This document shows, in pieces, positions 3,377 through 35,902 of a stretch of 35,902 bases of DNA. The DNA lies in NCBI GenBank assembly GCA_017457065.1, contig JAFTIE010000267.1, positions 1 through 35,902 on the forward strand, read 5' to 3'. Below the pieces are notes generated by a model. The model saw nothing but the letters and a program-made list of their open reading frames with translations. It did no database searches and was not told the origin of the DNA. Both the position numbers and the translations under genes were made by a program. This DNA is from Lentisphaeria bacterium. GTDB taxonomy: Bacteria > Verrucomicrobiota > Lentisphaeria > Victivallales > Victivallaceae. Numbering within the stretch: the stretch's first letter is position 1; the number at the start of each line of letters is the position of its first letter.

Positions 3377-3378
3377 CC

Positions 3379-4545
3379 ATGAAAAAATTGACTGTACTCG
3401 GAGTGGGGTCGGCAGGATGCCGGATCACCGGAATCCTCAATACGCTCCCCGGCGCTGAAAATCTCAGACTTCTGGGCTTTGACTGTGACGCTGAGGCTCT
3501 GAAAAATTCAGGTCTCCCAGAAGAAAATCTTATCCTTGCCGGTGTCAAATGGCGCGGCGGCAGAGGCTGTGGCGGCAAAGTCAACGACGGTAAGGCCGCC
3601 GCCGCCGTCGAAAGAGAGACCCTGGCAGGAGTTCTGGAAGGAACGCCTTTGCTGGTGGTCATCGCCGGTTTGGGCAGAGGTTTCGGCACCGGCTCCATGT
3701 CGGTGATACAAAGCGTCACCTCAAAGTTGAAGATACCTACTGTTTTTCTGCTCAACACACCCTTCCTTTTTGAAGGCGGCGGCAGAACGAAACTGGCTGA
3801 AAACACCATCAACTGCGATTTGCTCCCTCTGGCAGGGGCAGTTGTCGTTGTGCCCAATGATCTGCTTTTCTGCACCTTGAAATCATCAGTTCCTCATGAA
3901 GAGGCCTTTGCTCTTGCCGACAGAGTCATGGCTGAATCCGCCATGGCTCTGGCTGTGCCCCTCTGCTCCGGGAACCGGCTGGCGGCGGATTACGATACCT
4001 TGAGCGCTTTGCTCTGCAGGCAGCACGCCTTGTGCAGCATCGGGCACGCCTCTGTTGATCCGGAGGATCCGGAAAAAGAGCGCAAACTTGTTGAAAATCT
4101 TTTTGACTCTCCCATGCTGGGGGGCAGTTCAAAACTCAAAAAGGCAGATGCCGTCCTGATGATCCTCAACGGCGGCAGCGGACTTTCTCTGGGAGATGCC
4201 AGAGGGATTTTTGAAAATCTTCAGAAATATGTCTCCCCCGACTGCGAGGTCCTTATCGGTGCCGGTGCCGACAGCGCCTGGGGCAGGGAGATGCAGCTGG
4301 TGGTGCTGACCATCAAATTTGAGAAAAGTGAACCGGGACAATGCGCCGCCGGAAACGCCCCCGCCACCCGCAAGGGACGGAAAAAGCGTGCGGAAGGGGA
4401 AGAGGAATTCCAGCCCGATCTCTTTTCTGCCCAGACAAATGAGCTGGGCGTCATGGAGGGCACTCCCCCTGTGATCGTGGACGGAGTCAATTTGGATGTG
4501 CCCACATTTTTGCGCAAAAATATCCCCGTAGACCGCAGGAATTGA
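3379..4545 (+). CDS. ftsZ: Divergent FtsZ (tubulin-fold cell division GTPase)
   Basis: The protein is 388 residues from the ATG at 3379. An in-frame ATG at 3355 would overlap ftsA by 22 bases. The N-terminus MKKLTVLGVGSAGCRI resembles the first FtsZ nucleotide loop (usually VGGGG). The tubulin signature is altered: AGLGRGFGTGS (96-106) instead of AGMGGGTGTG. The T7 catalytic loop, normally NxDxxD, appears as AADYDT (202-207), so the Asn and second Asp seem lost. Residues 372-381, LDVPTFLRKN, are a textbook FtsZ C-terminal peptide that binds FtsA, after a charged linker. Position after ftsA and this tail make the identity firm, but GTPase competence is doubtful by eye. Confidence 0.88.
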   Translation: MKKLTVLGVGSAGCRITGILNTLPGAENLRLLGFDCDAEALKNSGLPEENLILAGVKWRGGRGCGGKVNDGKAAAAVERETLAGVLEGTPLLVVIAGLGRGFGTGSMSVIQSVTSKLKIPTVFLLNTPFLFEGGGRTKLAENTINCDLLPLAGAVVVVPNDLLFCTLKSSVPHEEAFALADRVMAESAMALAVPLCSGNRLAADYDTLSALLCRQHALCSIGHASVDPEDPEKERKLVENLFDSPMLGGSSKLKKADAVLMILNGGSGLSLGDARGIFENLQKYVSPDCEVLIGAGADSAWGREMQLVVLTIKFEKSEPGQCAAGNAPATRKGRKKRAEGEEEFQPDLFSAQTNELGVMEGTPPVIVDGVNLDVPTFLRKNIPVDRRN

Positions 4546-21024: not shown

Positions 21025-21102
21025 GGTGGTTGTGGCGCAGTTGGTTAGCGCGTCTGGTTGTGGCCCAGAAGGTCGCCGGTTCAAGTCCGGTCTACCACCC
21101 CA
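21025..21102 (+). tRNA. tRNA-His (anticodon GTG)
   Basis: The cloverleaf folds by eye. The gene-encoded G-1 is at 21025. Acceptor GTGGTTG (21026-21032) pairs with CTACCAC (21092-21098), with a T6-T67 mismatch. The D arm is GCGC/GCGC. The anticodon stem TCTGG/CCAGA holds loop TTGTGGC, anticodon GTG. The T arm is GCCGG-TTCAAGT-CCGGT. Discriminator C73 and an encoded CCA end at 21102. The extra G-1 with C73 is the hallmark of tRNA-His. Promoter and terminator flank it as a single-gene unit. Confidence 0.96.
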
Positions 21103-22691: not shown

Positions 22692-22744
22692 TATATAAAA
22701 AATACATTACATGGGTGGACAAATTCTGTCTGGCGTGTTATATT
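22692..22744. promoter_or_regulatory. Divergent promoters with candidate WYL operator
   Basis: Plus strand: TGGACA (22716-22721), N17, TATATT (22739-22744) for the regulator. Minus strand: TTGTCC (22722-22717) and TATATA (22697-22692), spacing 19 (or 17 to TTTATA), for the HQW pair. The imperfect palindrome 22714-22734 (GGTGGACA...TGTCTGGC) covers both -35 boxes. The minus-strand block 22723-22701 matches 24516-24538 in 20 of 23 bases. Confidence 0.65.
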
Positions 22745-22777: not shown

Positions 22778-23797
22778 ATGGCAAGTGATGTAACTAAAAT
22801 GACCCGGCTGGTGAAAATCGTTTCGCTATTGCGGCAGAATGTTTATCCCAATCATAAAACTGTGGAAAAAGCGTTGCGTTCTCTGGATGCGGCGGGAGTT
22901 TACAATGTTTCGCAAAAGACCATTCAGCGGGATGTGCAATACTTGCGGGATATGTACGCTGCCCCCATCGCCTTTGACAATGGCAGACGGGGCTATTATC
23001 TGACTGATCCGGAGTGGAAGTTTGAAGTCCCCAATCTGGAAGCTGACGAAATGCGGGCGGTAACGCTCGGCGCACGCCTTGCCGAAACAATTATGCCGGA
23101 ACCAGTGGCAAGCGAGATACAAAGTGCCGCTGATGCGCTATTGTGCGAAAATCCGACTGGACTGGATGTCAATGCTTCATTGATCGCTCTGGTTGCCAAA
23201 GGAGCAAGAATTCCAGTCAAGCCGGAGATCTTTCAGGAGGTTTTCACCGCCTGGCAATCCCGTCGCGGCTTATCGGTCAAATACTGCAAAGGGATGACGG
23301 GGAGAGAAACACGCTATATTCTTGAACCCCATGTCCTCTCTTTTTATGATGGCTTATGGTATGTGAAAGCGATCATCGTTTCGGAAAACGGCGAGACTCT
23401 GCCGGAGCGGACCATCCGCACTCTTGCCCTGAACCGTTTTCAATTTGCGGCGATTTATCCGGGGAAATTTACCCTTGATATGCGTCTGGTGCAGGAGGTC
23501 AACGAAGGAAACTTGTTCAACTTCCCGGTTGTGGAAGAAGTTGTCTTACGCTTTATCGATTATGCTATTCCTTACTCCAGGGAAAATTACGAATCAGAAC
23601 TCATCGAAGAGCAAGCGGACGGCAGTTTATTGGTAACGATTTACGATGTGCCGGACTTCAAGATCATAAATCTTGTTCTGAACGAAGGCGGTGCGGTACA
23701 AGTTGTCAGTCCGGCAGAACTGGCGGATAAAGTCGTGGAGAAAGCGGAACGGGTGATGAAAATGAATAGATTCAAGGAGAACAAAAATAATGCCTAA
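22778..23797 (+). CDS. WYL-domain transcriptional regulator (HTH-WYL-WCX)
   Basis: This 339-residue protein has an N-terminal winged helix (about 8-78) with recognition helix SQKTIQRDVQYLRDMY (45-60) and wing GRRGYYL. The WYL domain (about 150-245) shows LEPHVLSFYDGLWYVKAII and ERTIRTLALNRF, the ligand-sensing core. A WCX-type C-terminal domain follows (VVLRFIDYAIPYSREN onward). This is the architecture of BrxR/CapW-like repressors that control anti-phage loci (established knowledge). It probably represses its own promoter and the shared block next to it. Its end overlaps the next gene by 8 bases, so it heads an operon. Confidence 0.9.
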   Translation: MASDVTKMTRLVKIVSLLRQNVYPNHKTVEKALRSLDAAGVYNVSQKTIQRDVQYLRDMYAAPIAFDNGRRGYYLTDPEWKFEVPNLEADEMRAVTLGARLAETIMPEPVASEIQSAADALLCENPTGLDVNASLIALVAKGARIPVKPEIFQEVFTAWQSRRGLSVKYCKGMTGRETRYILEPHVLSFYDGLWYVKAIIVSENGETLPERTIRTLALNRFQFAAIYPGKFTLDMRLVQEVNEGNLFNFPVVEEVVLRFIDYAIPYSRENYESELIEEQADGSLLVTIYDVPDFKIINLVLNEGGAVQVVSPAELADKVVEKAERVMKMNRFKENKNNA

Positions 23798-24455
23798 AAT
23801 CGAAAGTAAAAACACTGATCTTGCATGCTTAAAAAAACATATTTCAAAAGCAATCCTTCGTGCAAATAAAATTGATGTCACCCAACTTACAGACCTCAAG
23901 TTTAAAAAAACAATGCGATGGCCTTATCCTCAAAATGGAACTTGCAATTTTATTGAATTTATCAATCAACTTTTCACGACAGTTGCATCAATAAAAGCCA
24001 TTGAATATTTGAAGGCAGAAAATGATAATTGGGTAATGAATCTTGGTACTACTTCTGGTCGTGATTTGACAGTTATTAAAAACAAACAGAATATTATTGC
24101 CGAGATTTTTGCCGTTACTGATCCAGATAGTAATGAAAAACTTAAAAATGAAATTTTATCTCTTACCTCTTTATCAAAAGAAGAAAAAGCAGATAAACGT
24201 TTTGCTTTTTTTATTTTATCCGAAGATAAATTCCCCAAAGAAGAGCAAGATGTAATCCATTGGACTACTTATAGTCCAAAAACTTCTGCGAAAGATAAGA
24301 TTGCTATTAAATTCAAAGAGAAATCATTCTCTTGCAGTAGCAAAGTAAGGCATTTGGCAACATGGTCTGCATTGTGCGGCGATGATGCAACAGAAATAAA
24401 TGTTGTTTGTTGGTCATCAGAAGATTGCTTATCTGAATTTATTCTTGACAAATAA
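23790..24455 (+). CDS. Unknown protein with PD-(D/E)XK-like core (paralogue of 27972-28790)
   Basis: The 221-residue protein starts inside the regulator's last codons with AAGGAG upstream. Residues 90-122 read GRDLTVI...IIAEIFAV...NEKLKNE, and 137-149 read RFAFFILSEDKFP. The second protein at 27972-28790 repeats this: GVDLS, CEIFTA, NNNKI, RFIFFCSPEKF. Asp92 and Glu105 could be metal ligands of a restriction-endonuclease fold, but the Lys of ExK is Phe107, so activity is doubtful. The gene is visibly more AT- and Lys-rich than its neighbours, suggesting recent transfer. No signal peptide. Function is inferred only. Confidence 0.6.
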   Translation: MPKIESKNTDLACLKKHISKAILRANKIDVTQLTDLKFKKTMRWPYPQNGTCNFIEFINQLFTTVASIKAIEYLKAENDNWVMNLGTTSGRDLTVIKNKQNIIAEIFAVTDPDSNEKLKNEILSLTSLSKEEKADKRFAFFILSEDKFPKEEQDVIHWTTYSPKTSAKDKIAIKFKEKSFSCSSKVRHLATWSALCGDDATEINVVCWSSEDCLSEFILDK

Positions 24456-24504: not shown

Positions 24505-24545
24505 GGTGGACACTTTTTGTCCACCAATGAACTGTATTGTATATA
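24505..24545 (+). promoter_or_regulatory. Promoter with candidate WYL operator before the 127-residue gene
   Basis: A palindrome at 24505-24525 (GGTGGAC...GTCCACC, 7-base arms) overlaps the -35 TTGTCC (24517-24522). N17 and TATATA (24540-24545) follow. TTTGTCCACC and the downstream ATG..TGTATT block repeat the divergent promoter at 22701-22723. A repressor bound here would block RNA polymerase. Confidence 0.65.
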
Positions 24546-24572: not shown

Positions 24573-24956
24573 ATGCAGTATTTGTACTTTTGGTGCAACT
24601 ATCAAACCGGCGTTATTGCCGAAGTTGCGGAGTTCGCCAGTTATATCCGCACTCATGCGGATGAATTGGGTGTCCCTGCTGAAGTGCAAGACGGATTTGA
24701 GCAATATTCCCGGTTTGAAAGTCTGCTTTTCTACTCATTTATTTACCGCAATGCTCCTCTTGCACGCATCAAATTGAAAGAAAAAGAACTCATTGTGAGA
24801 TTCTGCAATGTCGATGATACCCAACTGCTCAATGTTGTGGAACGCTTCGGCAGAGAACGGCAATTTGCTCCTGATTTCAGAATCTATATTACCAATTATC
24901 ATACCTTGTTGCGCCGCATTTGCCGCTGGCAGGATTTTCCGGGAGTTGCAAGATGA
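24573..24956 (+). CDS. Unknown 127-residue protein
   Basis: I chose the ATG at 24573 because AAGGAGG lies 8 bases upstream; the frame also opens at a TTG (24537). The protein MQYLYFWCNYQTGVIAEVAE continues as a soluble alpha/beta protein with YSRFESLLFYSFIYRN and IYITNYHTLLRRICRW. There are no recognised motifs. It is the first gene after its own operator-promoter and is tightly linked to the next gene (ATGA overlap). Function unknown. Confidence 0.65.
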   Translation: MQYLYFWCNYQTGVIAEVAEFASYIRTHADELGVPAEVQDGFEQYSRFESLLFYSFIYRNAPLARIKLKEKELIVRFCNVDDTQLLNVVERFGRERQFAPDFRIYITNYHTLLRRICRWQDFPGVAR

Positions 24957-25158: not shown

Positions 25159-26130
25159 ATGTTTATTGAAAAAATGCAGTATGACCAGGACAAATTTTAT
25201 ATCAACTGTTTTAAGAATTTGAAAAACAACCTGAAAAACAATCCTGAAAAAGCCGAAAAAGATATTGCGGTGAACGGCCTGTGGATGTTTCGCAATGCAG
25301 TTAATAATGGAGACTTTGCGACAGCTCACGAACTGCTTGATCTCGGAGTTTTTACCAAATATGACTGCAAGCATAATCCAGAACACGCATTGGAGTACGC
25401 CTGGCACAACTCTTACAGCACTCCGGAAGAACACGCCGCATTTGTACAGGAAATGAGTGCACTGGAAAGTTATATGAAGTTTGATTGTCATTGGGACGCT
25501 ATGCTCGGATTTGCAGTCGCTCTCAAAGAAAAAGAACTGGCTTGGAAATATGCCCGTAAAGGCGGCAGAATCCGTCAGTGGGGAAAAGATGGAGAAAAAT
25601 GGACTTTCCATCAGCTTCTTATGCAGACTGACTGGGAAGATGTACGCAACTCCTACCGGGCAGTTTGTACTTTTGACGATTGGAAACTGGAATATGAGTT
25701 GATGTTGGCAGAAATCATTTACGATACAATGAAACAGTTGACTCCGTCAAGCGAAGATGATCATGGCAACGAGTACCAGATTGAATACAATGACCCTGAA
25801 GCATCAATTTGGTTCCGGCCGATTTTTTCATACGGCAGGCTCTATATGGATGTCTCTTTTTACGGTCAATGTGCCAATCCATATATGGGACCGGTTTGTT
25901 TGGGACCATCCTGGGAGCGTTTTATTGCGATGAAAGTCGATTCGGATTATGCTGGAATGTTTCAAATTGGCGAACTTGTCGGTCCGGCGCTGTGTGGTTA
26001 TGCCTCTGAATTTTTCGGTTTCGGGCCATCGCAGATCCGCGATAAAAAAATGCGTCGCAGTTTTGCCGCCAAACTCGGACATCTTTACAGAAAATATCCC
26101 CGCCAAAAGAAAGAACAGGACAACAAATAA
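25159..26130 (+). CDS. Unknown 323-residue protein, ankyrin-like N-terminal half
   Basis: GGGAGA precedes the ATG. Residues about 38-75 (LWMFRNAVNNGDFATAHELLDLG) look like an ankyrin-type helix pair, and AMLGFAVALKEKELAWKYARKGG (about 115-137) could be another. The C-terminal half is rich in aromatic residues and Gly (FRPIFSYGRLYMDVSFYG, CANPYMGPVCLGPSWERF) and ends in a basic tail. No catalytic signature is seen. It is probably cytoplasmic and in the operon between the membrane protein and the phosphatase. Confidence 0.6.
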   Translation: MFIEKMQYDQDKFYINCFKNLKNNLKNNPEKAEKDIAVNGLWMFRNAVNNGDFATAHELLDLGVFTKYDCKHNPEHALEYAWHNSYSTPEEHAAFVQEMSALESYMKFDCHWDAMLGFAVALKEKELAWKYARKGGRIRQWGKDGEKWTFHQLLMQTDWEDVRNSYRAVCTFDDWKLEYELMLAEIIYDTMKQLTPSSEDDHGNEYQIEYNDPEASIWFRPIFSYGRLYMDVSFYGQCANPYMGPVCLGPSWERFIAMKVDSDYAGMFQIGELVGPALCGYASEFFGFGPSQIRDKKMRRSFAAKLGHLYRKYPRQKKEQDNK

Positions 26131-26154: not shown

Positions 26155-27177
26155 ATGCAAATTTATGTTAAAGCACGCTCATTTTTTGAAGCCCGTCAGG
26201 GAACAACGCAGGAAAGAGAACTTTTCCGGTACAACCGGATCATATCCATCAACAATGTGAGTTTTCCGGCAGAACCACCGCCTTTTTCGGAGAAATTTCT
26301 GGATGCGGAGAATCTGCTTATCCTTTATTTTGATGATGTGGATGAAGGTTTTCCCAATGCCATGACCCCGAAACAGGCACGCGAGATCGTGAATTTTGTC
26401 CGGCTCGAAGATAACCGTCCAATCATTGTGCATTGTACGGCAGGGATCTCCCGCAGTGGTGCGGTCGGCGAAGTGCTGAACTGGTATTTCAACCGTTATC
26501 TGGAAGATAATCCGCCAGTTTACCGGCTGAATGAAATAATGAATCGTGACATTGTTCCCAACAGTCATGTACGAAGATTGCTGCTCGCCGAATTGCAGCG
26601 CAATCACGAAAAACTGCGTGGTATGGTCAAAACTATTCGGATGCGTTATTTGAAAAAACGATTGAAATATCTTCTTTCGGGAGCGTGTGCCGAAAAAATT
26701 TATTCCGATCATCCGCAACTTGAAGCATGGTTCAAAAAATTTAATTGCGTTTCTTTTTCCGAAAAAGTTATTTGTGGAAATCCGGAAGTGACAAAACTTG
26801 CCAAAGACAAATTTCTTCACAGCCGGTGCGGTGTGACCAGTTATAATGGCAAAGTGCTGGTCACCGATCTCAAAGGTGACGGCAAAATGTTTGAAATATT
26901 TGATAAAATGCTGCAAATGGCAACACCGGAAACTTATGCGGTCAAAGAAGAAAATCATCAGGATTTTTTCACTCCGTTCAAAGAATATTTCAAATCACGA
27001 ATTTACGATCACAGCAAAATGTTTCTGCGTCTTTTTGAAAATGATCCCCGTCAGGCGGCGATTATGCTTCTTGTAAATACTCAATTTGACTTTGTTAATA
27101 TGTTCAGCAAGCACGCTATTTGGCATCACGCTCAAAAATTTGACTATCTTTATGAACAATTTCAGCAACAGCAATGA
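26155..27177 (+). CDS. Protein tyrosine/dual-specificity phosphatase fold with an extra C-terminal domain
   Basis: The protein is 340 residues. Residues 93-101 are HCTAGISRS, the HCx5R(S/T) active site of Cys-dependent phosphatases (Cys94 nucleophile, Arg100). Upstream YFDDVDEG (about 57-64) can supply the general acid Asp. The phosphatase domain ends near 160. The C-terminal ~180 residues are unknown, basic and helical, with RYLKKRLKYLLSG and a YNGKVLVTDLKGDGKMFEIF segment. GGAGATC precedes the ATG. A phosphatase in a WYL-controlled island suggests reversal of a phosphorylation signal or removal of a phosphate from a nucleic acid; this is inference. Confidence 0.85.
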   Translation: MQIYVKARSFFEARQGTTQERELFRYNRIISINNVSFPAEPPPFSEKFLDAENLLILYFDDVDEGFPNAMTPKQAREIVNFVRLEDNRPIIVHCTAGISRSGAVGEVLNWYFNRYLEDNPPVYRLNEIMNRDIVPNSHVRRLLLAELQRNHEKLRGMVKTIRMRYLKKRLKYLLSGACAEKIYSDHPQLEAWFKKFNCVSFSEKVICGNPEVTKLAKDKFLHSRCGVTSYNGKVLVTDLKGDGKMFEIFDKMLQMATPETYAVKEENHQDFFTPFKEYFKSRIYDHSKMFLRLFENDPRQAAIMLLVNTQFDFVNMFSKHAIWHHAQKFDYLYEQFQQQQ

Positions 27178-27188
27178 AAGGATATTCT

Positions 27189-27914
27189 ATGATCTCTACC
27201 GGATTTTCAGCTCTTGACAAGTGCATCGGCGGCTTGAAAAAAGGAAAACTCTATACTCTTGCCGGATTCAATTTCACCCCGCCGTGGATCGTGGAACATT
27301 TCGCTATCAATATGATCGCCAATTCCCGCAGTTACGGCGTGGTTCATGCCAATTATCTTCCACAAAGTGCCGGGAACTTTTTTGGCTGTGAAATATTTTT
27401 TTCGGTTGGCGAAAACAATGATTTTCCAAAAATCCCGTCTGTTAATGATAAAGAATTCCGCTTTCTCCCATTGCCGGCAGCAAAAAATGAAAATATTGAC
27501 AAAATTTGCGGCAGATTTTCTGTGTTTCATAAAATGCACCCTTTTGATATTGCTGTTTTTGATATTCGGCACATTGATCTGCCGAAAAGGAAATTCCCCT
27601 CTACCAGCGGCAAAAGAGCCAACCATATCACCGGGATTTTTCAAAAACTGGCGGATGTTCATAATATCCCCATTATTCTGCTGGATGAATTCTCTAACTT
27701 TGATTTGGAGGAAAATGCTCCTGCTATTCAACTCAAACCGACTGCATACAGCAATGCTTTGCAGAAAAATGTCGAAAATCTGATCGTTATTTCCCGGAAG
27801 GCATTTCAGGATACACAGTTTGATCTGGCAGTTTTTCAGCAAGGAAAAAGTGTGGCAGAGTTTGAAGTTTGTTCTCATGTTGAATCCGATATTTCTTCTG
27901 GGAAAAATAAATAA
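27189..27914 (+). CDS. RecA/DnaB-fold protein that has lost its Walker A motif
   Basis: From the ATG at 27189 (AAAGGA upstream; another ATG at 27174 overlaps the phosphatase stop) the protein is 241 residues. ISTGFSALDKCIGGLKKGKLYTLAG is the start of a DnaB-type helicase core or KaiC-like ATPase. Where GxxxxGKT should follow there is FNFTPPW, so ATP binding at that loop is gone. FDIAVFDIRHIDL fits a Walker B strand, and KLADVHNIPIILLDEFS fits the DnaB strand after it. It may act as a non-hydrolysing partner or decoy of the replicative helicase. This is inferred from sequence resemblance only. Confidence 0.7.
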   Translation: MISTGFSALDKCIGGLKKGKLYTLAGFNFTPPWIVEHFAINMIANSRSYGVVHANYLPQSAGNFFGCEIFFSVGENNDFPKIPSVNDKEFRFLPLPAAKNENIDKICGRFSVFHKMHPFDIAVFDIRHIDLPKRKFPSTSGKRANHITGIFQKLADVHNIPIILLDEFSNFDLEENAPAIQLKPTAYSNALQKNVENLIVISRKAFQDTQFDLAVFQQGKSVAEFEVCSHVESDISSGKNK

Positions 27915-27971: not shown

Positions 27972-28790
27972 ATGAAGACCGTCAGCAACCAGACCGAGTT
28001 GAGAAATCTTGTTTGTACAATCTTGGATTCTGCGGATAAAACCCGTGAGAAATTGCAGAATATGAGTACAGAGGATTTCCTTTTTAACGGGAAATTCGGT
28101 TCTCTGGGAACCAAATGGGATAATCCTGCACAAGACGATGATTTGGGCGAACAGATCCAGCAAAGCATGACTATGCTGATGACTTGTTATGCCATTGATT
28201 GGTTTTATTTTCAGCTTGTAAATTTCAAAAACACTTCCCGAGAGGGATCTTTTGCAATCAATGATGGCGATAAAAACGGTGTGGATTTGTCCTTTAAGGG
28301 AAAGGGTGATTTATTTACTTTGACAGATCCTTTTACCGGCGGAGAAACGCTTAAACGGGACCATGTAAAATATATACAGGCCCAAAAAGCACTTTGCGAA
28401 ATTTTCACGGCAAAAAATCCGTATAACAACAACAAAATATTTCACGATTTACGGGTGCTTTCTGAAAGAACTGCTAAAGAAAACCTCTGTATGCGTTTTA
28501 TTTTCTTTTGCTCTCCTGAAAAATTCAGCGACACCAGACTTAAATGCAAACCGGAAAATATTGAAATTATCAAGATCGACAAAACGCAGGAGACCAGTTA
28601 CGGCAAACATGTATACCAACGTGTAAACGGCGAGATCAAACTTGTCAGCGGCGGACACGATCCCATTCAATCAGAGATTATTAGAGTTATATATAAAATT
28701 GCTGACTTCGAACACCGGGCGCATATTATCCATATTACGCCGGAATCTTTGCTGATGTGGGCAAAGGGAGTTGCAGAAGACTGGAAATAA
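27972..28790 (+). CDS. Second PD-(D/E)XK-like protein of the island
   Basis: The 272-residue protein has AAAGGAACAGTAAA before the ATG. GVDLSFKGKG (103-112), QKALCEIFTAKNPYNNNKI (138-156) and MRFIFFCSPEKF (174-185) match the protein at 23790-24455 in order. Asp105 and Glu143 would be the metal ligands; the ExK Lys is again Phe (Phe145). A longer insert separates the two motifs. N- and C-terminal helical parts differ. No signal peptide. Either a catalytically unusual nuclease or a DNA-binding relic of that fold; no known family can be named with certainty. Confidence 0.6.
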   Translation: MKTVSNQTELRNLVCTILDSADKTREKLQNMSTEDFLFNGKFGSLGTKWDNPAQDDDLGEQIQQSMTMLMTCYAIDWFYFQLVNFKNTSREGSFAINDGDKNGVDLSFKGKGDLFTLTDPFTGGETLKRDHVKYIQAQKALCEIFTAKNPYNNNKIFHDLRVLSERTAKENLCMRFIFFCSPEKFSDTRLKCKPENIEIIKIDKTQETSYGKHVYQRVNGEIKLVSGGHDPIQSEIIRVIYKIADFEHRAHIIHITPESLLMWAKGVAEDWK

Positions 28791-28794
28791 ACCA

Positions 28795-29724
28795 ATGGCA
28801 TACCCGATTGAAGAAAAATTAGTGATTGCAGTTGCATCCAGTGCACTCTTTGCATTGGATGAAGCTGATACCGTATTCCGTCAAAAGGGCGTGCGCGCCT
28901 ATCGGGAGTATCAGCGGGAACACGAAAACGATGTGCTGTCTCCGGGGATAGCGTTTCCCTTTGTGCGGAGATTTCTGGAACTCAATACCGTTTTTCCGGA
29001 ACGCCAGCCCGCAGAAGTTGTCCTGCTATCCCGTAACGATTCGGATACCGGAATGCGGGTTTTCAACTCCATCGAACACTACAAACTCGGCATTATCCGG
29101 GCGGCATTTACCAGAGGGAATTCGCCGTTCCGGTATATTCCTGCCTACAATGTTTCGCTTTTCCTTTCGGGCAATGAGTTTGATGTAACAGAAGCACTTA
29201 ACAATGGTTTCCCGGCAGGATTGGTGCTGCCGAGTGCCGCCAATGACAATGCAAATGATGCCGAATTGCGCGTGGCATTTGACTTTGACGGCGTGATCGC
29301 CGATGACAGTGCAGAAAAGATTTTCCAAACCGAAGGCATCAAAGCGTTTTACGATTCCGAAACTGCCAATGCCCAGACCGCCATTTCGCCCGGACCATTG
29401 GGAGACCTCTTCCGCAAGCTGGGAAACTTGCGTAATTTGGAAGATGAACGCGAAGAAAGTGATCCGGAATACAAGCGTTTTCTTAAAACCTCCATTGTTA
29501 CCGCCCGCAGTGCCCCGGCACACCGCAGGGTGATCCACACCTTGCGCAGCTGGAACATCACCGTTGATGAAACCCATTTCCTCGGCGGCATGGATAAAGG
29601 CAGGATCTTGGAAACATTGAAGCCCCATATTTTCTTTGACGATCAGCAGCATCCGCATCTGGATGCCGCACAGAAGTTTACGCCGTCAGTACATATACCT
29701 TTCGGCGTGGCAGCAAAGAAGTGA
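28795..29724 (+). CDS. Cytosolic 5'-nucleotidase I-type HAD phosphatase
   Basis: The 309-residue protein (ATG 28795, 4 bases after the previous stop) matches the NT5C1/PF06189 5'-nucleotidase family. LRVAFDFDGVIADDSAEKIF (about 158-177) is the HAD motif 1, TSIVTARSAPAHRRVIHTLRSW is motif 2, and FLGGMDKGRILETLKPHIFFDDQ holds motifs 3 and 4. The family hydrolyses nucleoside 5'-monophosphates (established for NT5C1A). The weak ribosome site implies coupling to the upstream gene. The directly following mraY releases UMP, so removing UMP is an attractive role here (inference). Confidence 0.85.
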   Translation: MAYPIEEKLVIAVASSALFALDEADTVFRQKGVRAYREYQREHENDVLSPGIAFPFVRRFLELNTVFPERQPAEVVLLSRNDSDTGMRVFNSIEHYKLGIIRAAFTRGNSPFRYIPAYNVSLFLSGNEFDVTEALNNGFPAGLVLPSAANDNANDAELRVAFDFDGVIADDSAEKIFQTEGIKAFYDSETANAQTAISPGPLGDLFRKLGNLRNLEDEREESDPEYKRFLKTSIVTARSAPAHRRVIHTLRSWNITVDETHFLGGMDKGRILETLKPHIFFDDQQHPHLDAAQKFTPSVHIPFGVAAKK

Positions 29725-29728
29725 AATT

Positions 29729-30886
29729 ATGCTCTATTATCTGCATAACTTCAGTGAACTTTTCGGTCCGTTTCGGCTGTTTGAGTACATCTCATTTCGG
29801 GCGGGCGGAGCGTTTTTTACGGCATTTCTCTTAACCGTGTTTGCCATACCGCCACTCTTACCCTTTTATCAAAAGCATTGTATTCAGAAATCTGCCCGCA
29901 CCGATGACGGCAAAAAGCCGTACAAACCTTTGATGGGCGGCGTGATCATTATCAGTTCCGTGGTGATTTCAGCCCTGCTATGGGGGATGATCGCCGACCG
30001 CAAACTGATTGTTTTCATTTTGGCAACACTGGCATTGGCAATGTTGGGATTTGTGGATGATTTCATCAAACTCAAATACCTGCGCGAGGAACGGGACGGA
30101 GTAAAACGCAACACCAAGGTCATAGTACAGGCAATTATTTCAGTAATTGCGATTTACGCACTTTACAAAACGCACGGGACGGTTACTATGAAAATATTTC
30201 TGCCCTGCTTCAAACAGGCGTTTCAGTTTGTTCCGGGGAGTGAAAGTATCGTTGTTATGACACCGTTTTCCAGTGATGCATGGTTCTGTTTGCCGTTGGT
30301 CATTATGCCATTATGCTTGATTTTTATGCTCTTACTTAATTTCGGAGTGCTGTTTTGTGCCAGCAATGGAGTGAATCTCACCGATGGAAAAGATGGCTTG
30401 GCTTCAGGATGTATGATTTTTGCGGCGTTGGCATTTGCCGTGATTTCGTATCTCTCCGGACATAAAATTTTTGCAGAATATTTGAATATACCCTTTGTGC
30501 CGGGGGCGGGCGAAGTGGGGATTTATGCGTGTGCCATTGCCGGAGCGTGTATGGGATTTCTGTGGCACAATTGTGAACCGGCAAGTTTGATCATGGGCGA
30601 CACCGGCAGTCTGGCACTTGGCGGGGCATTGTCGCTGATTGCCATTATGCTGGGTCAGCAAATACTGCTGTTTATCATTGGGGGAATATTCATTATAGAA
30701 CTTGCCTCATCATTTATCCAGCAGAAATATTACCGATTGACCGGCGGAAAAAGACTATTTTTAATGGCTCCGCTGCATCATCATTACGAGAAAAAAGGTG
30801 TTCCGGACAGCAGAATAACCATCCGGTTCTGGATCATCGCCATCCTTTTTGCGCTGATCGGTCTTGCCACCTTGAAAATACGGTAA
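29729..30886 (+). CDS. mraY: Phospho-N-acetylmuramoyl-pentapeptide-transferase
   Basis: MraY moves phospho-MurNAc-pentapeptide from UDP to undecaprenyl phosphate, giving lipid I and UMP. From the ATG at 29729 (4 bases after the nucleotidase) it has 385 residues and about ten TM helices. The catalytic parts are present: GFVDDFIKLKY (Asp-Asp, about 108-118), NLTDGKDGLASG (216-227), IMGDTGSLALGG (about 290-301) and APLHHHYEKKG (about 347-357). The usual Leu of NLTDGLDG is Lys here. Its place in an accessory island, away from other murein genes, is odd and suggests either an extra copy or a displaced core gene. Confidence 0.92.
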   Translation: MLYYLHNFSELFGPFRLFEYISFRAGGAFFTAFLLTVFAIPPLLPFYQKHCIQKSARTDDGKKPYKPLMGGVIIISSVVISALLWGMIADRKLIVFILATLALAMLGFVDDFIKLKYLREERDGVKRNTKVIVQAIISVIAIYALYKTHGTVTMKIFLPCFKQAFQFVPGSESIVVMTPFSSDAWFCLPLVIMPLCLIFMLLLNFGVLFCASNGVNLTDGKDGLASGCMIFAALAFAVISYLSGHKIFAEYLNIPFVPGAGEVGIYACAIAGACMGFLWHNCEPASLIMGDTGSLALGGALSLIAIMLGQQILLFIIGGIFIIELASSFIQQKYYRLTGGKRLFLMAPLHHHYEKKGVPDSRITIRFWIIAILFALIGLATLKIR

Positions 30887-30887
30887 T

Positions 30888-30919
30888 AAAAAAGGCGACA
30901 CCGTTTTACCGATGCCGCC
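30888..30919 (-). terminator. Terminator of the recombinase operon
   Basis: Ten-pair hairpin at 30894-30919 (arms GGCG...CGCC with two G-T pairs, six-base loop). On the minus strand it is followed by T6 (30893-30888). It may also slow plus-strand transcription leaving mraY. It marks the probable edge of the prophage-type module. Confidence 0.8.
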
Positions 30920-30942: not shown

Positions 30943-31317
30943 TTAGAGCAGTTCCTTTTCCTGCTTACTCCAAACCATGGGAAAGCTTCTCCGCAAAGTC
31001 TGCATTGAAATATCTGCTTCTCCAGTGATGAGCTTATGAATGATTGTCGGGGAAAGCAAAGTCAAGCGTATTGCCTTTGCTACTACTCCGGGATCAATGC
31101 CGATGGCTTTTGCCAGTTCCTTGATGTTGGGATATGCCCCTTCGTCAATCAGCTCCTGCCAATGAAAACCTCTGGCAAGATTCAACAGCAACGGCGAGCC
31201 GCACCCGGTCAATCTTGCCACATCTTTTGCAACGATCCGCTTGCGACCACCTTGGGTTTTGATGGACACGGGAATACTCACCCGGATGTTTCCGTTTTTA
31301 AGAATTTCACTCTTCAT
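30943..31317 (-). CDS. KorB/ParB-like HTH protein next to the recombinase
   Basis: This 124-residue protein overlaps the recombinase gene by 11 bases, with GAGGAA as ribosome site. NIKELAKAIGIDPGVVAKAIRLTLLSPTI followed by HKLITGEADISM is a ParB/KorB-type helix-turn-helix (about 64-101). It ends PMVWSKQEKELL. Small proteins of this kind commonly follow DUF2924 and a serine recombinase in phage-like elements. It probably binds DNA at the element's ends or controls integration. Confidence 0.75.
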   Translation of the reverse strand: MKSEILKNGNIRVSIPVSIKTQGGRKRIVAKDVARLTGCGSPLLLNLARGFHWQELIDEGAYPNIKELAKAIGIDPGVVAKAIRLTLLSPTIIHKLITGEADISMQTLRRSFPMVWSKQEKELL

Positions 31318-32590
31318 CTTCTGTAAATTCCTCTATTATACTTTTCATTCCGTCACTTTTGATATCAAGGTCGATGTGGTCTTCGTGAAGCGTGACCTTA
31401 TCGAGAATCAACTGTGAAAGGCGCGTAAACTCTGCCGGGGTGATCTCTTGCCAGAAGTTTTCTCTGAACATATCCGAAATTATCCGTTGCGGCAATTCAG
31501 TCTTTTCTGCCAATTCGGTGAGAATGTCGTGGGAATGGAAAACTCTGCCGAGCTGCTCCTGGACGAGCGACTCAACCATTCCTGCCGGAACTTTTTTGAT
31601 GGGACAATCGCTCAATCCGGTTGATTTCTCGTGCTTTTCGCAGAGGTAGTAATAATATGTTACCCCCTTCTTCTTTGCATAAGAAGGCATCATCGGACAG
31701 CCGCAATGTCCGCATCTGATAATTCCCCGGAGAGGAATATCCCGGCGAGTACGTTTGGATGGGTCTTTTATCGGATTGTTGGCTGCCAGAATTTCTCTGG
31801 TGCGTTCCCAAGTTTCCGAATCAATAATGGCTTCATGTTCTGCTTCATAAATTGTGGAACCCTTGTAATTGATTTCCCCAATATAGGTGTGATTATTGAG
31901 TATCCGATAAACCGCCGCCGTTGCCCAGGGTTTGTTAGTCTTTGTTTTGAAATTTTCGGCGTTTAATTCAGCCGCAATCACCTTTGGTGATTGAATTTCA
32001 ATATACCGCTGAAAAATCCTCCGGACAAGATTCGCTTCTTCGGGGATCACAACAAGTTTTTTATTAACTGATTTGTACCCTAAAACAACGCAGCCACCAG
32101 TATACATCCCCTTCCGTTTTGACGCGAAAAGTTTATCTTTGGTTCGTTCGGAGATAATTTCCCGCTCATATTGGGCAAATGTCATCAAAATATTCAGCAT
32201 CATCCTGCCGGATGAGCTTGCGGTATTTATTTCCTGTGTTACGGAAACGAACTGAACGCCATATTCATCAAACTTTTTTATCAGTTCTGAAAAATCGCAA
32301 ATGGATCGGGACAGTCGATCAATTTTATAAACAACGATTATATCCACCAAACCATCTTCGCAATCCTTCATAAGCTGCTGAAGTCCCGGACGCCGGGTAT
32401 TCCCCCCGGAATAGCCGTAATCATCATATCTTGTCGGAAGACAAACCCAGCCGTTTGCTCTCTGACTTGCGATGTAGCTTTCCCCTGCTTCCCGTTGTGC
32501 ATCTATTGAGTTAAACTCCTGCATTTCCGCGTCTTCCACGGATTTTCTGCAGTAGACTATGCATCGCTTTTTGGGTTGTTTTTCTGTCAT
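31307..32590 (-). CDS. Large serine recombinase (site-specific integrase)
   Basis: The 427-residue protein starts at ATG 32590, in TAATG with the DUF2924 stop, with GGGGTG upstream. The resolvase domain has YCRKSVED with the catalytic Ser, YKIDRLSRS with the catalytic Arg pair, and QYEREIISERT at the start of the long helix. The recombinase domain spans about 165-260. A zinc ribbon follows (CGHCGCPM...CEKH...C). The C-terminal part is short on coiled coil. It integrates or excises the element. It lies at the left end of the phage genes, so one att site is expected nearby; none could be fixed by eye. Confidence 0.93.
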   Translation of the reverse strand: MTEKQPKKRCIVYCRKSVEDAEMQEFNSIDAQREAGESYIASQRANGWVCLPTRYDDYGYSGGNTRRPGLQQLMKDCEDGLVDIIVVYKIDRLSRSICDFSELIKKFDEYGVQFVSVTQEINTASSSGRMMLNILMTFAQYEREIISERTKDKLFASKRKGMYTGGCVVLGYKSVNKKLVVIPEEANLVRRIFQRYIEIQSPKVIAAELNAENFKTKTNKPWATAAVYRILNNHTYIGEINYKGSTIYEAEHEAIIDSETWERTREILAANNPIKDPSKRTRRDIPLRGIIRCGHCGCPMMPSYAKKKGVTYYYYLCEKHEKSTGLSDCPIKKVPAGMVESLVQEQLGRVFHSHDILTELAEKTELPQRIISDMFRENFWQEITPAEFTRLSQLILDKVTLHEDHIDLDIKSDGMKSIIEEFTEDEE

Positions 32591-33018
32591 TATTTCACCC
32601 CGAAAAATACCTTTCCGTTCCAACGGGTACCAGTGATGGCACGGGCCACTGCCGAAAGAGACGTGTAAATCTCTCCGGAAAATTCAAACCTGTTCTTGCC
32701 CAGCACGGTAACCTCATATTTTTTACCTTTCCAAATGCGTTCATACTTTGCACCGGCAACCTTGCTGATTCCATCATTCGGCTTCCGGACAAGATTTGCC
32801 AGCGGATCATGCCGAATGAGATTTCTCAAAAAATCCCGGTCCTCAATGGGAACTCCATCGGAGTAACTTTCCTGAAGTCGATAAATGATTCTGTTGCGAA
32901 TTGTCACAATACTGGTTTGTCCGGGAGGGAAACCGTAAAGTTCCTCGAATTTTGCATTGAGTTCCGGAACGCCCATATCGTAGACATCGGCAATTTCTCT
33001 GCTCATAGATTTATCCAT
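32590..33018 (-). CDS. DUF2924 family protein
   Basis: From ATG 33018 (AAGGAG upstream; a TTG at 33027 is less likely) it has 142 residues. ELNAKFEELYGFPPGQTS, a YRLQES helix, KYERIWKGKKYEVTVLG and the C-terminal LSAVARAITGTRWNGKVFFG are the DUF2924 signature. Members sit beside serine recombinases in phage-like elements. The tail resembles a SAWADEE/RAMA-like DNA-binding module. Likely role: an accessory DNA binder for recombination. Confidence 0.85.
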   Translation of the reverse strand: MDKSMSREIADVYDMGVPELNAKFEELYGFPPGQTSIVTIRNRIIYRLQESYSDGVPIEDRDFLRNLIRHDPLANLVRKPNDGISKVAGAKYERIWKGKKYEVTVLGKNRFEFSGEIYTSLSAVARAITGTRWNGKVFFGVK

Positions 33019-33023
33019 AATAT

Positions 33024-33158
33024 TCAACTCCTTCTGTTATGCCCGTAATATTCATCACTTGCTTCGTTCTGTTCTCCGGCTTTGATTCTTCGGAGAATTG
33101 CTGCGACAAGATCCATTAACTGCCGCATATGCTCCGGATAATTTTTTGCTGTAATCAT
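33024..33158 (-). CDS. 44-residue microprotein, tandem paralogue 1
   Basis: The ATG at 33158 is preceded by AAGGTG. The protein begins MITAKNYPEHMRQLMDLVAA and continues ILRRIKAGEQ, ending YYGHNRRS. Its stop overlaps the DUF2924 ribosome site. Residues 8-26 match the neighbour at 33213-33320 (PE-x2-RQ-x2-DL-[VI]-AAILRRI). One amphipathic helix. Function unknown. Confidence 0.7.
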   Translation of the reverse strand: MITAKNYPEHMRQLMDLVAAILRRIKAGEQNEASDEYYGHNRRS

Positions 33159-33212
33159 AAATCACCTTTCTGTTTTGTTGTAACAGCTTCAGACTGCGCT
33201 ATATATAAAGCA

Positions 33213-33320
33213 TCACGCTGGCGAATTATCCAGTTGCTTTTCTCTGATTCTCCGCAAAATAGCGGCGATAAGATCAACTGCTTGCCGAATATTCTCTGGA
33301 ATGACCTTGTTTTCATCCAT
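33213..33320 (-). CDS. 35-residue microprotein, tandem paralogue 2
   Basis: The ATG at 33320 has AGGAG upstream and overlaps the last codons of the terminase gene by 8 bases. It reads MDENKVIPENIRQAVDLIAA, then ILRRIREKQL. The conserved helix is the same as in the 44-residue neighbour, so they are a duplication. The gap 33159-33212 holds no other gene. Confidence 0.7.
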   Translation of the reverse strand: MDENKVIPENIRQAVDLIAAILRRIREKQLDNSPA

Positions 33321-35652
33321 TTTTGCTCCTTCTGATATCTGAAAGTTTCATCTTGCCGCTGGTGGTGGGTTGCGGTCTTTCCCCGATGCGGCGGTCGGAA
33401 AGACGGATCATGGGTTTGCGAGCAGTTTTCACCGGCAGAGTTTCCGGGAGAGCTGCTCCGAGCATGGAGGCACAGACGGCACATCCGGCGATACAGTCAA
33501 GCCAGTGGTTGTCGGTTCGGTCGGGTTTGAGTTTCCATTCGTCCACGGTTCTGCCGCGACCTTGGGTCTTGACTTTGTATTCGGCGGTAAGGTGTTCTGC
33601 CAGGAGTTGATGTACTCCGGGAATTCTGCCATAGAGTGAAAGATTGCCCTTGTCGCCGAGTTCCACCGCAAGCCGGGTGTGGATGAAGCTCTTCCAAAAG
33701 TTTGTATCGTAGATGACGTGACGGATCGCCCGTTTTCCTGCCACATTGGGAACCATCCAGTTGAAGCCCAGCCGGTCACCCGGTTGCTTGCGATACTCCG
33801 TCATCGGTTTACTGCTTGCACCGACATACCGACCGTGGGACGGCATTATAATACCGGCGTGTGTACTTTGACGGCAGAACTGATATACAATATCTGTACT
33901 CTGTCCCCAGTTGGCATCTACCAATGCACGTTCAATTTTCAACACAGCCCCGTCTTCGCGCTCCCATTCTCTGCCGAGATATTCATCGGTAAGTTTGGTC
34001 AATGCGGCGTACAAACCGCCCTCAAAGCCAGCCTTGGGGAACGTGCTTTGAATTGTTGGATTTGCATCAGCAAGTGAAAACTGTCTGCGGTGCTGGTCGG
34101 GCCAAGAGCCGTAATCAATAACAGCCCCGGTGAAGTCCTCCCCCCACGCAACCACAGTGTAAAAGAGCAACGCTTTCTGAACGTCGATGAACATTGTCAG
34201 ACGGTCACAGGAAAGCGGAACACGATACCGGGCAATGCCGTTGACCTTGCCGCAGATCTCATCAACAGAAAGAAGTGTGTCATCGGACAAATCTTCCGGA
34301 AGCGGATCATTCTGATATTCGGCCTGGAAAGCGGCTTCGTCCTGCAGTTTGAGGTTCATAGCGTGTTGCAATGCAGAAACCTCATCATGATTATATCGGG
34401 CATCCCAACTGACGACTGCTCCCTCATCCATGGCTTCCCGGTTTGCCAGATAAAAATCGGTTGCTGCTTGGAAGTTTCCATCTGTCCGCAGGGCTTCTGC
34501 ACGGATTTCGGCGTATTCGTCCCATAGCTTCATGTTCTTCGGGAACTCATATACCATCTTTGTTTTCTCGCCGTTCCAGTCGGGGTGTGTATTCCGGTTC
34601 AAAATAATATCTGCCATATCTCCGGGACGGATAATGGTACAAGGCATAATTCCGGAGATCTTCTGCCCCGGTCCGGCAAGACCAAGAATGTCACCAGCAA
34701 GCACTCGCACCCGTTTCCGCGTCTGCTCAAGCGAACCAGCAGATTCCGAAGTCTGTGGATCATCAATGATCACAAGTGTTGGACGCACACTTCTGCCGTC
34801 TGACCGTTTGTATTTCATGCCGCGGACTCGACCGGTTATTCCTGCTACCCGGACGATAATTCCGGATGCCTTGCTGTCTTTGATCGTGGGCAGAACAATT
34901 TCATTGGAAGTCCATGTGATACGGGTTCGCTCTCCGTTGCAGTGTTGACCGGCACATCTATTGGCGATGCCGTCCAACTGCTCAATGGGGTAACAAACTT
35001 CAGGGAAGTCGGCTGCGAGATTTTCGTTGACTTCCAGTTCTGTCTTAATGGAGTCCAGCATTTCCAAAGCCGCCGACTCCGTTGCCCCGATCAGCGTGAC
35101 AAACTCCCGGTGTCCGTAAAGCATCGACCAGATTGCCGCCGTTTCAGCGAGTGTCGATTTACCACTGCCACGGGGCATAGCCAAAGCGAACAATCCACCG
35201 GAAAGAACAGCGGTTTCAATTTTTTCAATGGCTTTCAGATGATCAGGTGACCAGCCGAGGCTGTAGGTTTCCGGGAAATAACATTCACAAAAGAGCTGAA
35301 AGTTTCGCTCGCAGGATTTCTTACGTTCCGGGTTTACAACTTCCGGCAATGGGGAAATGTCACGGCCCGCAGCGGAGATGGCGGCGTTGCGCTGACGCTC
35401 GGCTTCTTTCCGTTCTTCATAGCTCCGGGCTGTTGAAACAAATTCTTCCGGAACGGTGTGCTTCTCATCGAAAAGCCACGCGATGTATTTTATAAGGTTG
35501 ATATTTCTGGTGTTTTCAGTAGCAGCAATGCGAAATCCCACCCGGTTGAATTGGCGGTAAAGCCGTGCCTGTGCCAAAACAAATCCCTGGGCGGTGGAGT
35601 TCAGCAGACGGGCTACATCAATTACCCGCATATTAGTTGGAGTCAGCGGCAT
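33313..35652 (-). CDS. Phage terminase large subunit with an N-terminal DNA-binding-like domain
   Basis: The 779-residue protein uses ATG 35652 (AGGAG spacing 6; ATG 35658 is too close to it). Walker A is LAMPRGSGKST (about 157-167), Walker B LVIIDDPQTS (about 292-301). The nuclease domain has FIDVQKA (about 487) and VDANWGQST (about 575) as Asp ligands. It packages phage DNA into heads. The first ~65 residues resemble the 68-residue protein encoded just upstream (NINLIKYIAWLF against TINLIEYAAWLV). Phage structural genes are expected beyond the right edge. Confidence 0.9.
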   Translation of the reverse strand: MPLTPTNMRVIDVARLLNSTAQGFVLAQARLYRQFNRVGFRIAATENTRNINLIKYIAWLFDEKHTVPEEFVSTARSYEERKEAERQRNAAISAAGRDISPLPEVVNPERKKSCERNFQLFCECYFPETYSLGWSPDHLKAIEKIETAVLSGGLFALAMPRGSGKSTLAETAAIWSMLYGHREFVTLIGATESAALEMLDSIKTELEVNENLAADFPEVCYPIEQLDGIANRCAGQHCNGERTRITWTSNEIVLPTIKDSKASGIIVRVAGITGRVRGMKYKRSDGRSVRPTLVIIDDPQTSESAGSLEQTRKRVRVLAGDILGLAGPGQKISGIMPCTIIRPGDMADIILNRNTHPDWNGEKTKMVYEFPKNMKLWDEYAEIRAEALRTDGNFQAATDFYLANREAMDEGAVVSWDARYNHDEVSALQHAMNLKLQDEAAFQAEYQNDPLPEDLSDDTLLSVDEICGKVNGIARYRVPLSCDRLTMFIDVQKALLFYTVVAWGEDFTGAVIDYGSWPDQHRRQFSLADANPTIQSTFPKAGFEGGLYAALTKLTDEYLGREWEREDGAVLKIERALVDANWGQSTDIVYQFCRQSTHAGIIMPSHGRYVGASSKPMTEYRKQPGDRLGFNWMVPNVAGKRAIRHVIYDTNFWKSFIHTRLAVELGDKGNLSLYGRIPGVHQLLAEHLTAEYKVKTQGRGRTVDEWKLKPDRTDNHWLDCIAGCAVCASMLGAALPETLPVKTARKPMIRLSDRRIGERPQPTTSGKMKLSDIRRSKNG

Positions 35653-35839
35653 CTTCATCTCCTTTCACGAGCCAAGCGGCATACTCAATCAGATTGATCG
35701 TGCCATCTTCATTCTGCGGCGCACCTGCCGCGATATCTTCAGCAATGCTCTCTTCGGTAATCAGCCGGGAGCCTGCCTGTTTGAGGATTCTCACGAGCAT
35801 TTCTATCGGTAATGCGGTGAGTTTCAACGAATTATCCAT
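35633..35839 (-). CDS. Small TerS-like HTH protein before the terminase
   Basis: This 68-residue acidic protein has AGAGGAAAATAT before its ATG and overlaps the terminase start. LPIEMLVRILKQAGSRLITEESIAEDI could be a helix-turn-helix, and GTINLIEYAAWLVKG (46-60) matches residues 51-63 of the terminase. Its place directly before terL fits a small-terminase-like DNA recogniser, but this is inferred. Bases 35840-35902 hold only its leader. Confidence 0.65.
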   Translation of the reverse strand: MDNSLKLTALPIEMLVRILKQAGSRLITEESIAEDIAAGAPQNEDGTINLIEYAAWLVKGDEDAADSN

Positions 35840-35902
35840 ATATTTTCCTCTATTTTCAAAAGTTGACTGGATATTGATCCGATTGCATGGTTATATATGC
35901 AC

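What the first reader, a model, noticed from the sequence alone, without database searches (positions are those of the whole stretch)
28795..30886. 5'-nucleotidase coupled to an accessory MraY
The genes are 4 bases apart. MraY releases UMP and is reversible; a nucleotidase that destroys UMP would push lipid I synthesis forward. A second MraY could also replace one blocked by a phage lysis protein or by a nucleoside antibiotic. Either would be a new accessory murein module. The Lys in NLTDGKDG, where Leu is usual, may change inhibitor binding.
Basis: inference. Interest (0 to 1): 0.7.

Follow-up and report, generated by a model that had tools for sequence, protein, structure and literature searches.

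The report
Mobile second MraY with altered drug pocket
Besides its own essential cell-wall enzyme MraY, this bacterium carries a second, foreign MraY at the end of a mobile gene cluster; two residues that hold antibiotics in the enzyme are changed, so it may be a spare that takes over when the normal enzyme is blocked, while the nucleotidase gene beside it is probably an independent passenger.

Summary
A PF06189 5'-nucleotidase (28795-29724) is followed after 4 nt by a full mraY (29729-30886), and the genome has another mraY. The pair recurs in one congener, G012, with both mraY genes on one contig. Between the two species MraY2 is 91% and the nucleotidase 97% identical, while the native MraYs are 59%: the block moved horizontally and is under purifying selection. 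The coupling story fails. Of 17 nucleotidase loci, 15 have no mraY beside them, a third island MraY2 (SIG94) lacks the nucleotidase, and five relatives have an MraY2-type enzyme as their only detected MraY. The highlighted Lys occurs in every MraY of the order. MraY2 does change two other inhibitor contacts (Aquifex numbering): Phe262, which stacks on uracil, is Ile, and Thr75 is Leu; catalytic residues are kept. The pair ends a modular, WYL-headed island with two operator-like palindromes found nowhere else in the genome; the nucleotidase matches a PADLOC phage-defence candidate (PDC-S08). Best reading: MraY2 is an accessory, target-bypass MraY and the nucleotidase is separate, defence-like cargo. 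Enzyme activity, inhibitor tolerance and the selecting agent are inferred.

The parts
22714..22734 (+). Operator-like imperfect palindrome GGTGGACA-N5-TGTCTGGC overlapping the promoter-like site of the WYL gene
   Evidence: 3 mismatches to the perfect site; the shared pattern is found nowhere else in the 3.5 Mb genome
22778..23797 (+). WYL-WCX transcriptional regulator heading the island
   Evidence: Pfam WYL and WCX over cut-off; 75% identical homologue heads the G032 island
23790..24455 (+). Unknown cargo protein overlapping the WYL gene by 8 nt
   Evidence: no family match
24505..24525 (+). Perfect palindrome GGTGGACA-CTTTT-TGTCCACC, second operator-like site, 48 nt before the next cargo gene
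   Evidence: a 3-mismatch relative lies about 44 nt before the homologous cargo block in G032
24573..24956 (+). Small unknown cargo protein, also in G032 and (27% identity) SIG94
25159..26130 (+). Unknown cargo protein, 56% identical homologue in G032
26155..27177 (+). Cargo protein resembling dual-specificity phosphatases
   Evidence: Pfam DSPc 2.5e-6, below the curated cut-off; 97% identical piece in G114
27174..27914 (+). Cargo protein weakly like DnaB/RecA-type ATPases; shared with G012 (70%) and G114 (93%)
27972..28790 (+). Unknown cargo protein; shared with G032 and G114, absent at this place in G012
28795..29724 (+). 5'-nucleotidase (NT5), PF06189; PADLOC phage-defence candidate PDC-S08
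   Evidence: dN/dS about 0.03 against G012
29729..30886 (+). Accessory MraY (MraY2), 385 aa; catalytic residues intact; F262I, T75L, T73K (Aquifex numbering)
   Evidence: dN/dS about 0.06 against G012
30894..30919 (-). Terminator-like hairpin between mraY2 and the convergent prophage gene
   Evidence: T run on the minus strand; DNA homology with G012 ends at 30893

Best explanation
MraY2 is a complete, horizontally acquired second MraY. It is the last cargo gene of a modular island headed by a WYL-family regulator and is probably expressed when that regulator releases its operators. It makes lipid I when the native MraY is blocked, most likely by a nucleoside-type inhibitor, because the uracil-stacking Phe and a neighbouring Thr that such inhibitors contact are replaced by Ile and Leu while the catalytic residues are kept. 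The 5'-nucleotidase next to it is a separate cargo gene, perhaps a nucleotide-depleting phage-defence enzyme, that shares the transcript but not the pathway. Shown: two MraYs in the genome, recent horizontal transfer, purifying selection, MraY2-type enzymes as the only detected MraY in five relatives, the residue changes, and operator-like palindromes unique in the genome. Inferred: enzymatic activity, regulation, inhibitor tolerance, the selecting agent and the nucleotidase's role.
For: Two MraYs in G000, in G012 on one 122-kb contig and in SIG94. MraY2 is closest to MraYs that are the only detected copy in G120, G121, G081, G088 and G090. The island copies form one clade (100/99) nested with those and far from the native MraYs of the genus. 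MraY2 dN/dS 0.051/0.848 against native 0.34/3.02 for the same two species. F262 is Phe in 43 of 43 MraYs outside the clade and in 78 of 78 mostly alphaproteobacterial MraYs, but Ile in all three island copies; T75 is Thr, Ser or Cys outside the clade and Leu within it. F262 stacks on the uracil of nucleoside inhibitors and T75 lines the uridine-adjacent pocket (PMC6606608); F262A is one of the two mutations that most disturbed muraymycin D2 binding (as reported in PMC11117252). Two palindromes unique in the genome bracket the regulator gene, and one recurs in G032. NT5 matches PDC-S08 at 5.5e-132.
Against: The same pocket binds the natural substrate UDP-MurNAc-pentapeptide, so the substitutions may reflect substrate or lineage drift: sole-copy relatives carry Tyr or Ile at 262 and Leu at 75. 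No binding, activity or expression data. None of the other cargo genes is a known resistance gene. PDC-S08 is only a guilt-by-embedding candidate and was evenly split between phage-resistant and susceptible P. aeruginosa strains (PMC10855318).
Confidence: 0.42

Rival explanations
1. Passenger xenolog. A mraY from a neighbouring lineage was swept into a gene-exchange hotspot and travels with it. It is functional but has no special role, merely adding dosage or occasionally replacing the native gene.
For: Island gene content is highly modular. MraY2-type is a plain housekeeping enzyme in g34 and g48, which lie in different families, consistent with past replacement events.
Against: Retained with dN/dS about 0.06 as a second copy in three genomes, each time as the last gene of related cargo; island copies share 21 positions found in no other MraY of the set, including T73K.
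Confidence: 0.28
2. MraY2 is a spare target against a phage lysis protein that blocks MraY, as protein E of phiX174 does, and belongs to a defence island.
For: Island setting with a WYL regulator and a defence-candidate nucleotidase. Extra or foreign copies of a lysis-protein target rescue cells: shown for the flippase MurJ (PMC10229422). The E-contact region on TM9 differs (E. coli E287 is Gln, F288 is Ile or Val, V291 is Phe), and there is a 26-residue insert before TM5.
Against: The native G000 MraY also lacks Phe288, and the E287Q change and the insert are shared with native f4-type MraYs, so nothing here is special to the island copy. No phage with an MraY-targeting lysis protein is known for this host.
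Confidence: 0.13
3. One reading: the nucleotidase destroys UMP released by MraY2 and pulls the reversible lipid I reaction forward.
For: The genes are 4 nt apart and travel as one DNA block in two species. MraY releases UMP (PMC5039524) and both proteins face the cytoplasm by family knowledge.
Against: mraY lies beside the nucleotidase in 2 of 17 loci; MraY2 occurs without it in SIG94 and in five sole-copy genomes, two of which lack PF06189 altogether. Homologues are lone plasmid genes in unrelated bacteria.
Confidence: 0.07
4. MraY2 uses a different UDP-sugar or lipid carrier and makes an island-specific glycan, so the pocket changes reflect substrate and not inhibitors.
For: The changes sit where the uracil of the substrate binds (PMC6606608).
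Against: Equivalog-level TIGR00445 score and intact HHH motif; the same type is the only MraY detected in five genomes; no glycosyltransferase or flippase gene was found in the island.
Confidence: 0.06

Closest known systems
MraY, phospho-MurNAc-pentapeptide transferase (TIGR00445)
   Same: Full-length equivalog-level match; catalytic Asp, Asn, Lys and His residues present; the same type is the only detected MraY in five relatives
   Different: Second copy on a mobile island; F262I, T75L and T73K; shortened cytoplasmic loop; insert before TM5 that it shares with f4-type native MraYs
Acquired target-replacement enzymes (for example mupirocin-insensitive MupA, PBP2a; from general knowledge)
   Same: Horizontally acquired second copy of an essential, inhibitor-targeted enzyme beside the native one
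   Different: Inhibitor insensitivity not shown; the setting is a WYL-headed cargo island, not a resistance transposon or biosynthetic cluster
PADLOC PDC-S08 / Pfam PF06189 5'-nucleotidase
   Same: NT5 matches both over its full length
   Different: Here followed by mraY; most homologues stand alone; defence activity unproven
WYL-regulated defence islands (BrxR- and CapW-type regulators; from general knowledge)
   Same: WYL regulator at the head, palindromic operator-like sites, mobile and modular cargo
   Different: No recognised defence system apart from the NT5 candidate; an essential murein gene as cargo

Membership tests
MraY (TIGR00445) | Equivalog model score over the curated cut-off | tested here: met
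   292.5 bits against 192.05
MraY (TIGR00445) | Catalytic DD, Lys, NxxDG, MGD and HHH residues | tested here: met
   alignment columns
MraY (TIGR00445) | Lipid I synthesis from UDP-MurNAc-pentapeptide | not testable with these tools
   indirect only: close relatives of MraY2 are the sole detected MraY in five draft genomes
PF06189 5'-nucleotidase | Full-length profile match | tested here: met
   residues 1-307 on profile 1-301 of 302, 411 bits
PDC-S08 phage-defence candidate | PADLOC model match | tested here: met
   E 5.5e-132, residues 1-308
PDC-S08 phage-defence candidate | Protection from phage | not testable with these tools
   candidate class only; even split in one P. aeruginosa panel (PMC10855318)
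   2 of 8 MraY2-type loci and 2 of 17 nucleotidase loci
Target-replacement enzyme | Horizontally acquired second copy beside the native gene | tested here: met
Target-replacement enzyme | Lower inhibitor sensitivity than the native enzyme | not testable with these tools
   predicted only, from F262I and T75L
WYL-regulated defence island | WYL regulator with operator palindromes | tested here: inconclusive
   regulator family met; palindromes unique in the genome, binding not shown
WYL-regulated defence island | Recognised defence genes among the cargo | tested here: inconclusive
   only NT5 (candidate) and the WYL protein match PADLOC clearly

The most novel reading that the evidence does not exclude
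A mobile, repressor-controlled defence island that carries an inhibitor-insensitive or lysis-protein-insensitive MraY as a plug-in replacement for a blocked essential cell-wall step (target-bypass immunity), which in some lineages has displaced the native enzyme.
Probability: 0.2. Interest if true: 0.8.

Novelty: new variant of a known kind. Interest (0 to 1): 0.5.

Why it matters
[quoted passage not shown] I found no paper in the held open-access library that describes a mobile second MraY. A natural MraY without the uracil-stacking Phe would show how the target can change its inhibitor pocket and still work, and genomes that appear to live on this enzyme type alone make the question directly testable.

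Tried and rejected
Phage origin of mraY2: no relative in viral contigs by patterns from MraY2, NT5 or two neighbour proteins (this method with a single query finds close relatives only). The 16 phage records with MraY matches are all under 60% identical and several look like host DNA, judged from annotation and not tested. Mis-binning: rejected because G012 carries both mraY genes on one contig. Special Lys in NLTDGKDG: rejected. Degenerate paralog: the long stem of the first tree (1.63) suggested it, but sole-copy relatives then joined the clade and the stem fell to 1.01. Structure predictions of two cargo proteins were poor (pLDDT 39 and 61) and the fold search gave nothing, so the HNH-like reading of the gene before NT5 or mraY2 in G012, SIG94 and G114 rests on a residue pattern seen by eye. 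Literature searches for a second mraY or for PDC-S08 function gave nothing decisive.

Full report
Observation. The nucleotidase runs 28795-29724 and mraY 29729-30886, 4 nt apart, on the + strand. The nucleotidase is a full-length PF06189 protein and the second gene a TIGR00445-level MraY. The window is a whole contig (C247) of a 3.5 Mb, 272-contig draft genome, about 90% complete.

A second mraY exists. G000 has another MraY on contig C41 (363 aa, 43% identical). It is not in a dcw cluster, but in this order mraY has no conserved neighbourhood. In the congener G012 the island copy and the native copy lie about 35 kb apart on one contig, so mis-binning does not explain the two copies. SIG94, a Lentisphaerae draft genome of the same order, also has two.

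Horizontal movement. Between G000 and G012 the homologous block begins exactly at the nucleotidase ATG and ends 7 nt after the mraY stop (86% DNA identity), while the gene just upstream differs. Island MraY: 91% protein identity, dN 0.051, dS 0.85. Native MraY of the same two species: 59%, dN 0.34, dS 3.0. Nucleotidase: dN 0.018, dS 0.70. G114, in another genus of the family, shares 95% DNA identity with the window over 1.3 kb of the upstream cargo. Both genes are under strong purifying selection.

Phylogeny of MraY2. In a 51-sequence tree the three island MraYs form a clade (100/99). They are nested with the MraYs of G120 and G121 (another genus of the same family) and of G081, G088 and G090 (another family), and sister to other f4-type MraYs. 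In those five genomes, 82-94% complete, no other MraY was found; the remaining PF00953 hits are WecA-like or fused proteins, classified by size and match span only. So this enzyme type is very probably a working MraY. The residues treated as catalytic are all kept.

Inhibitor pocket. But the island copies have Ile where 43 of 43 MraYs outside the clade, and 78 of 78 mostly alphaproteobacterial ones, have Phe (Aquifex F262). They have Leu at T75 (Thr, Ser or Cys outside the clade) and Lys at T73. F262 stacks on the uracil of nucleoside inhibitors and T75 lines the uridine-adjacent pocket (PMC6606608). F262A is, with D193N, the mutation that most disturbed muraymycin D2 binding (PMC11117252, citing earlier work). 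Position numbers were transferred through conserved motifs, not by structure. Tyr or Ile at 262 and Leu at 75 also occur in the sole-copy relatives, so a lineage or substrate effect is possible.

No coupling with the nucleotidase. Of 17 nucleotidase loci, only those of G000 and G012 have mraY beside them. In an 18th, G114, the contig ends inside the nucleotidase, so its next gene is unknown; the G015 contig ends 118 nt after the gene, with no mraY start directly after it. SIG94 has the island mraY without the nucleotidase. PF06189 is absent from 14 control genomes. Homologues sit alone on plasmids of unrelated bacteria. The protein matches PADLOC PDC-S08 at E 5.5e-132, a computational phage-defence candidate that was evenly split between resistant and susceptible strains in one P. 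aeruginosa panel (PMC10855318).

The island. A WYL-WCX regulator heads the set. Unknown proteins, a phosphatase-like protein and a weakly DnaB-like protein follow; in relatives the cargo is reshuffled (G012, G032, G114, SIG94). Two palindromic sites, GGTGGACA-N5-TGTCCACC (24505-24525, perfect) and a 3-mismatch copy over the promoter-like site of the WYL gene (22714-22734), are the only places in the genome that match the pattern, which I wrote after seeing them. A related site precedes the homologous block of G032. This suggests autoregulation plus control of the block that ends with the nucleotidase and mraY2; binding is not shown. A hairpin at 30894-30919 separates mraY2 from the convergent prophage genes.

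Conclusion. The pair is real and mobile, but the interesting unit is MraY2, not the pair. Most likely MraY2 is an accessory, possibly inhibitor-tolerant MraY used as a bypass. A nucleoside-type inhibitor is the favoured agent because the changed residues lie in that pocket; phage lysis proteins come second. A passenger xenolog is the strongest rival. None of this has been tested biochemically.

Noticed in passing
window 30943-35902 (- strand): Prophage segment convergent with mraY2: HTH protein, large serine recombinase, DUF2924 protein and GpA-type terminase large subunit; the contig ends just beyond it.
   Followed up: partly
window 22714-22734 and 24505-24525: Two GGTGGACA-N5-TGTC palindromes, unique in the genome, probable operators of the WYL regulator.
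   Followed up: yes
window 21026-21102: tRNA-His at the point where G+C drops from about 0.51 to 0.41, the likely left edge of the island.
   Followed up: no
window 2123-4545: Overlapping ftsA-like and divergent ftsZ-like genes with no mur gene near them.
   Followed up: no
L200, L201, L202, L203, L204: Genera g34 and g48, in different families, have the MraY2-type enzyme as their only detected MraY: a possible xenologous replacement of an essential gene.
   Followed up: partly
L207:1-3317 (G114): Cargo block 95% identical in DNA to the window although from another genus, showing very recent exchange.
   Followed up: partly
L044:1459-1977, L064:2285-2815, L207:2025-2594: Cargo protein with an HNH-like residue pattern (YTG, DH, NDAKNDL) that no library recognises; it occupies the slot before the nucleotidase or before mraY2.
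   Followed up: partly
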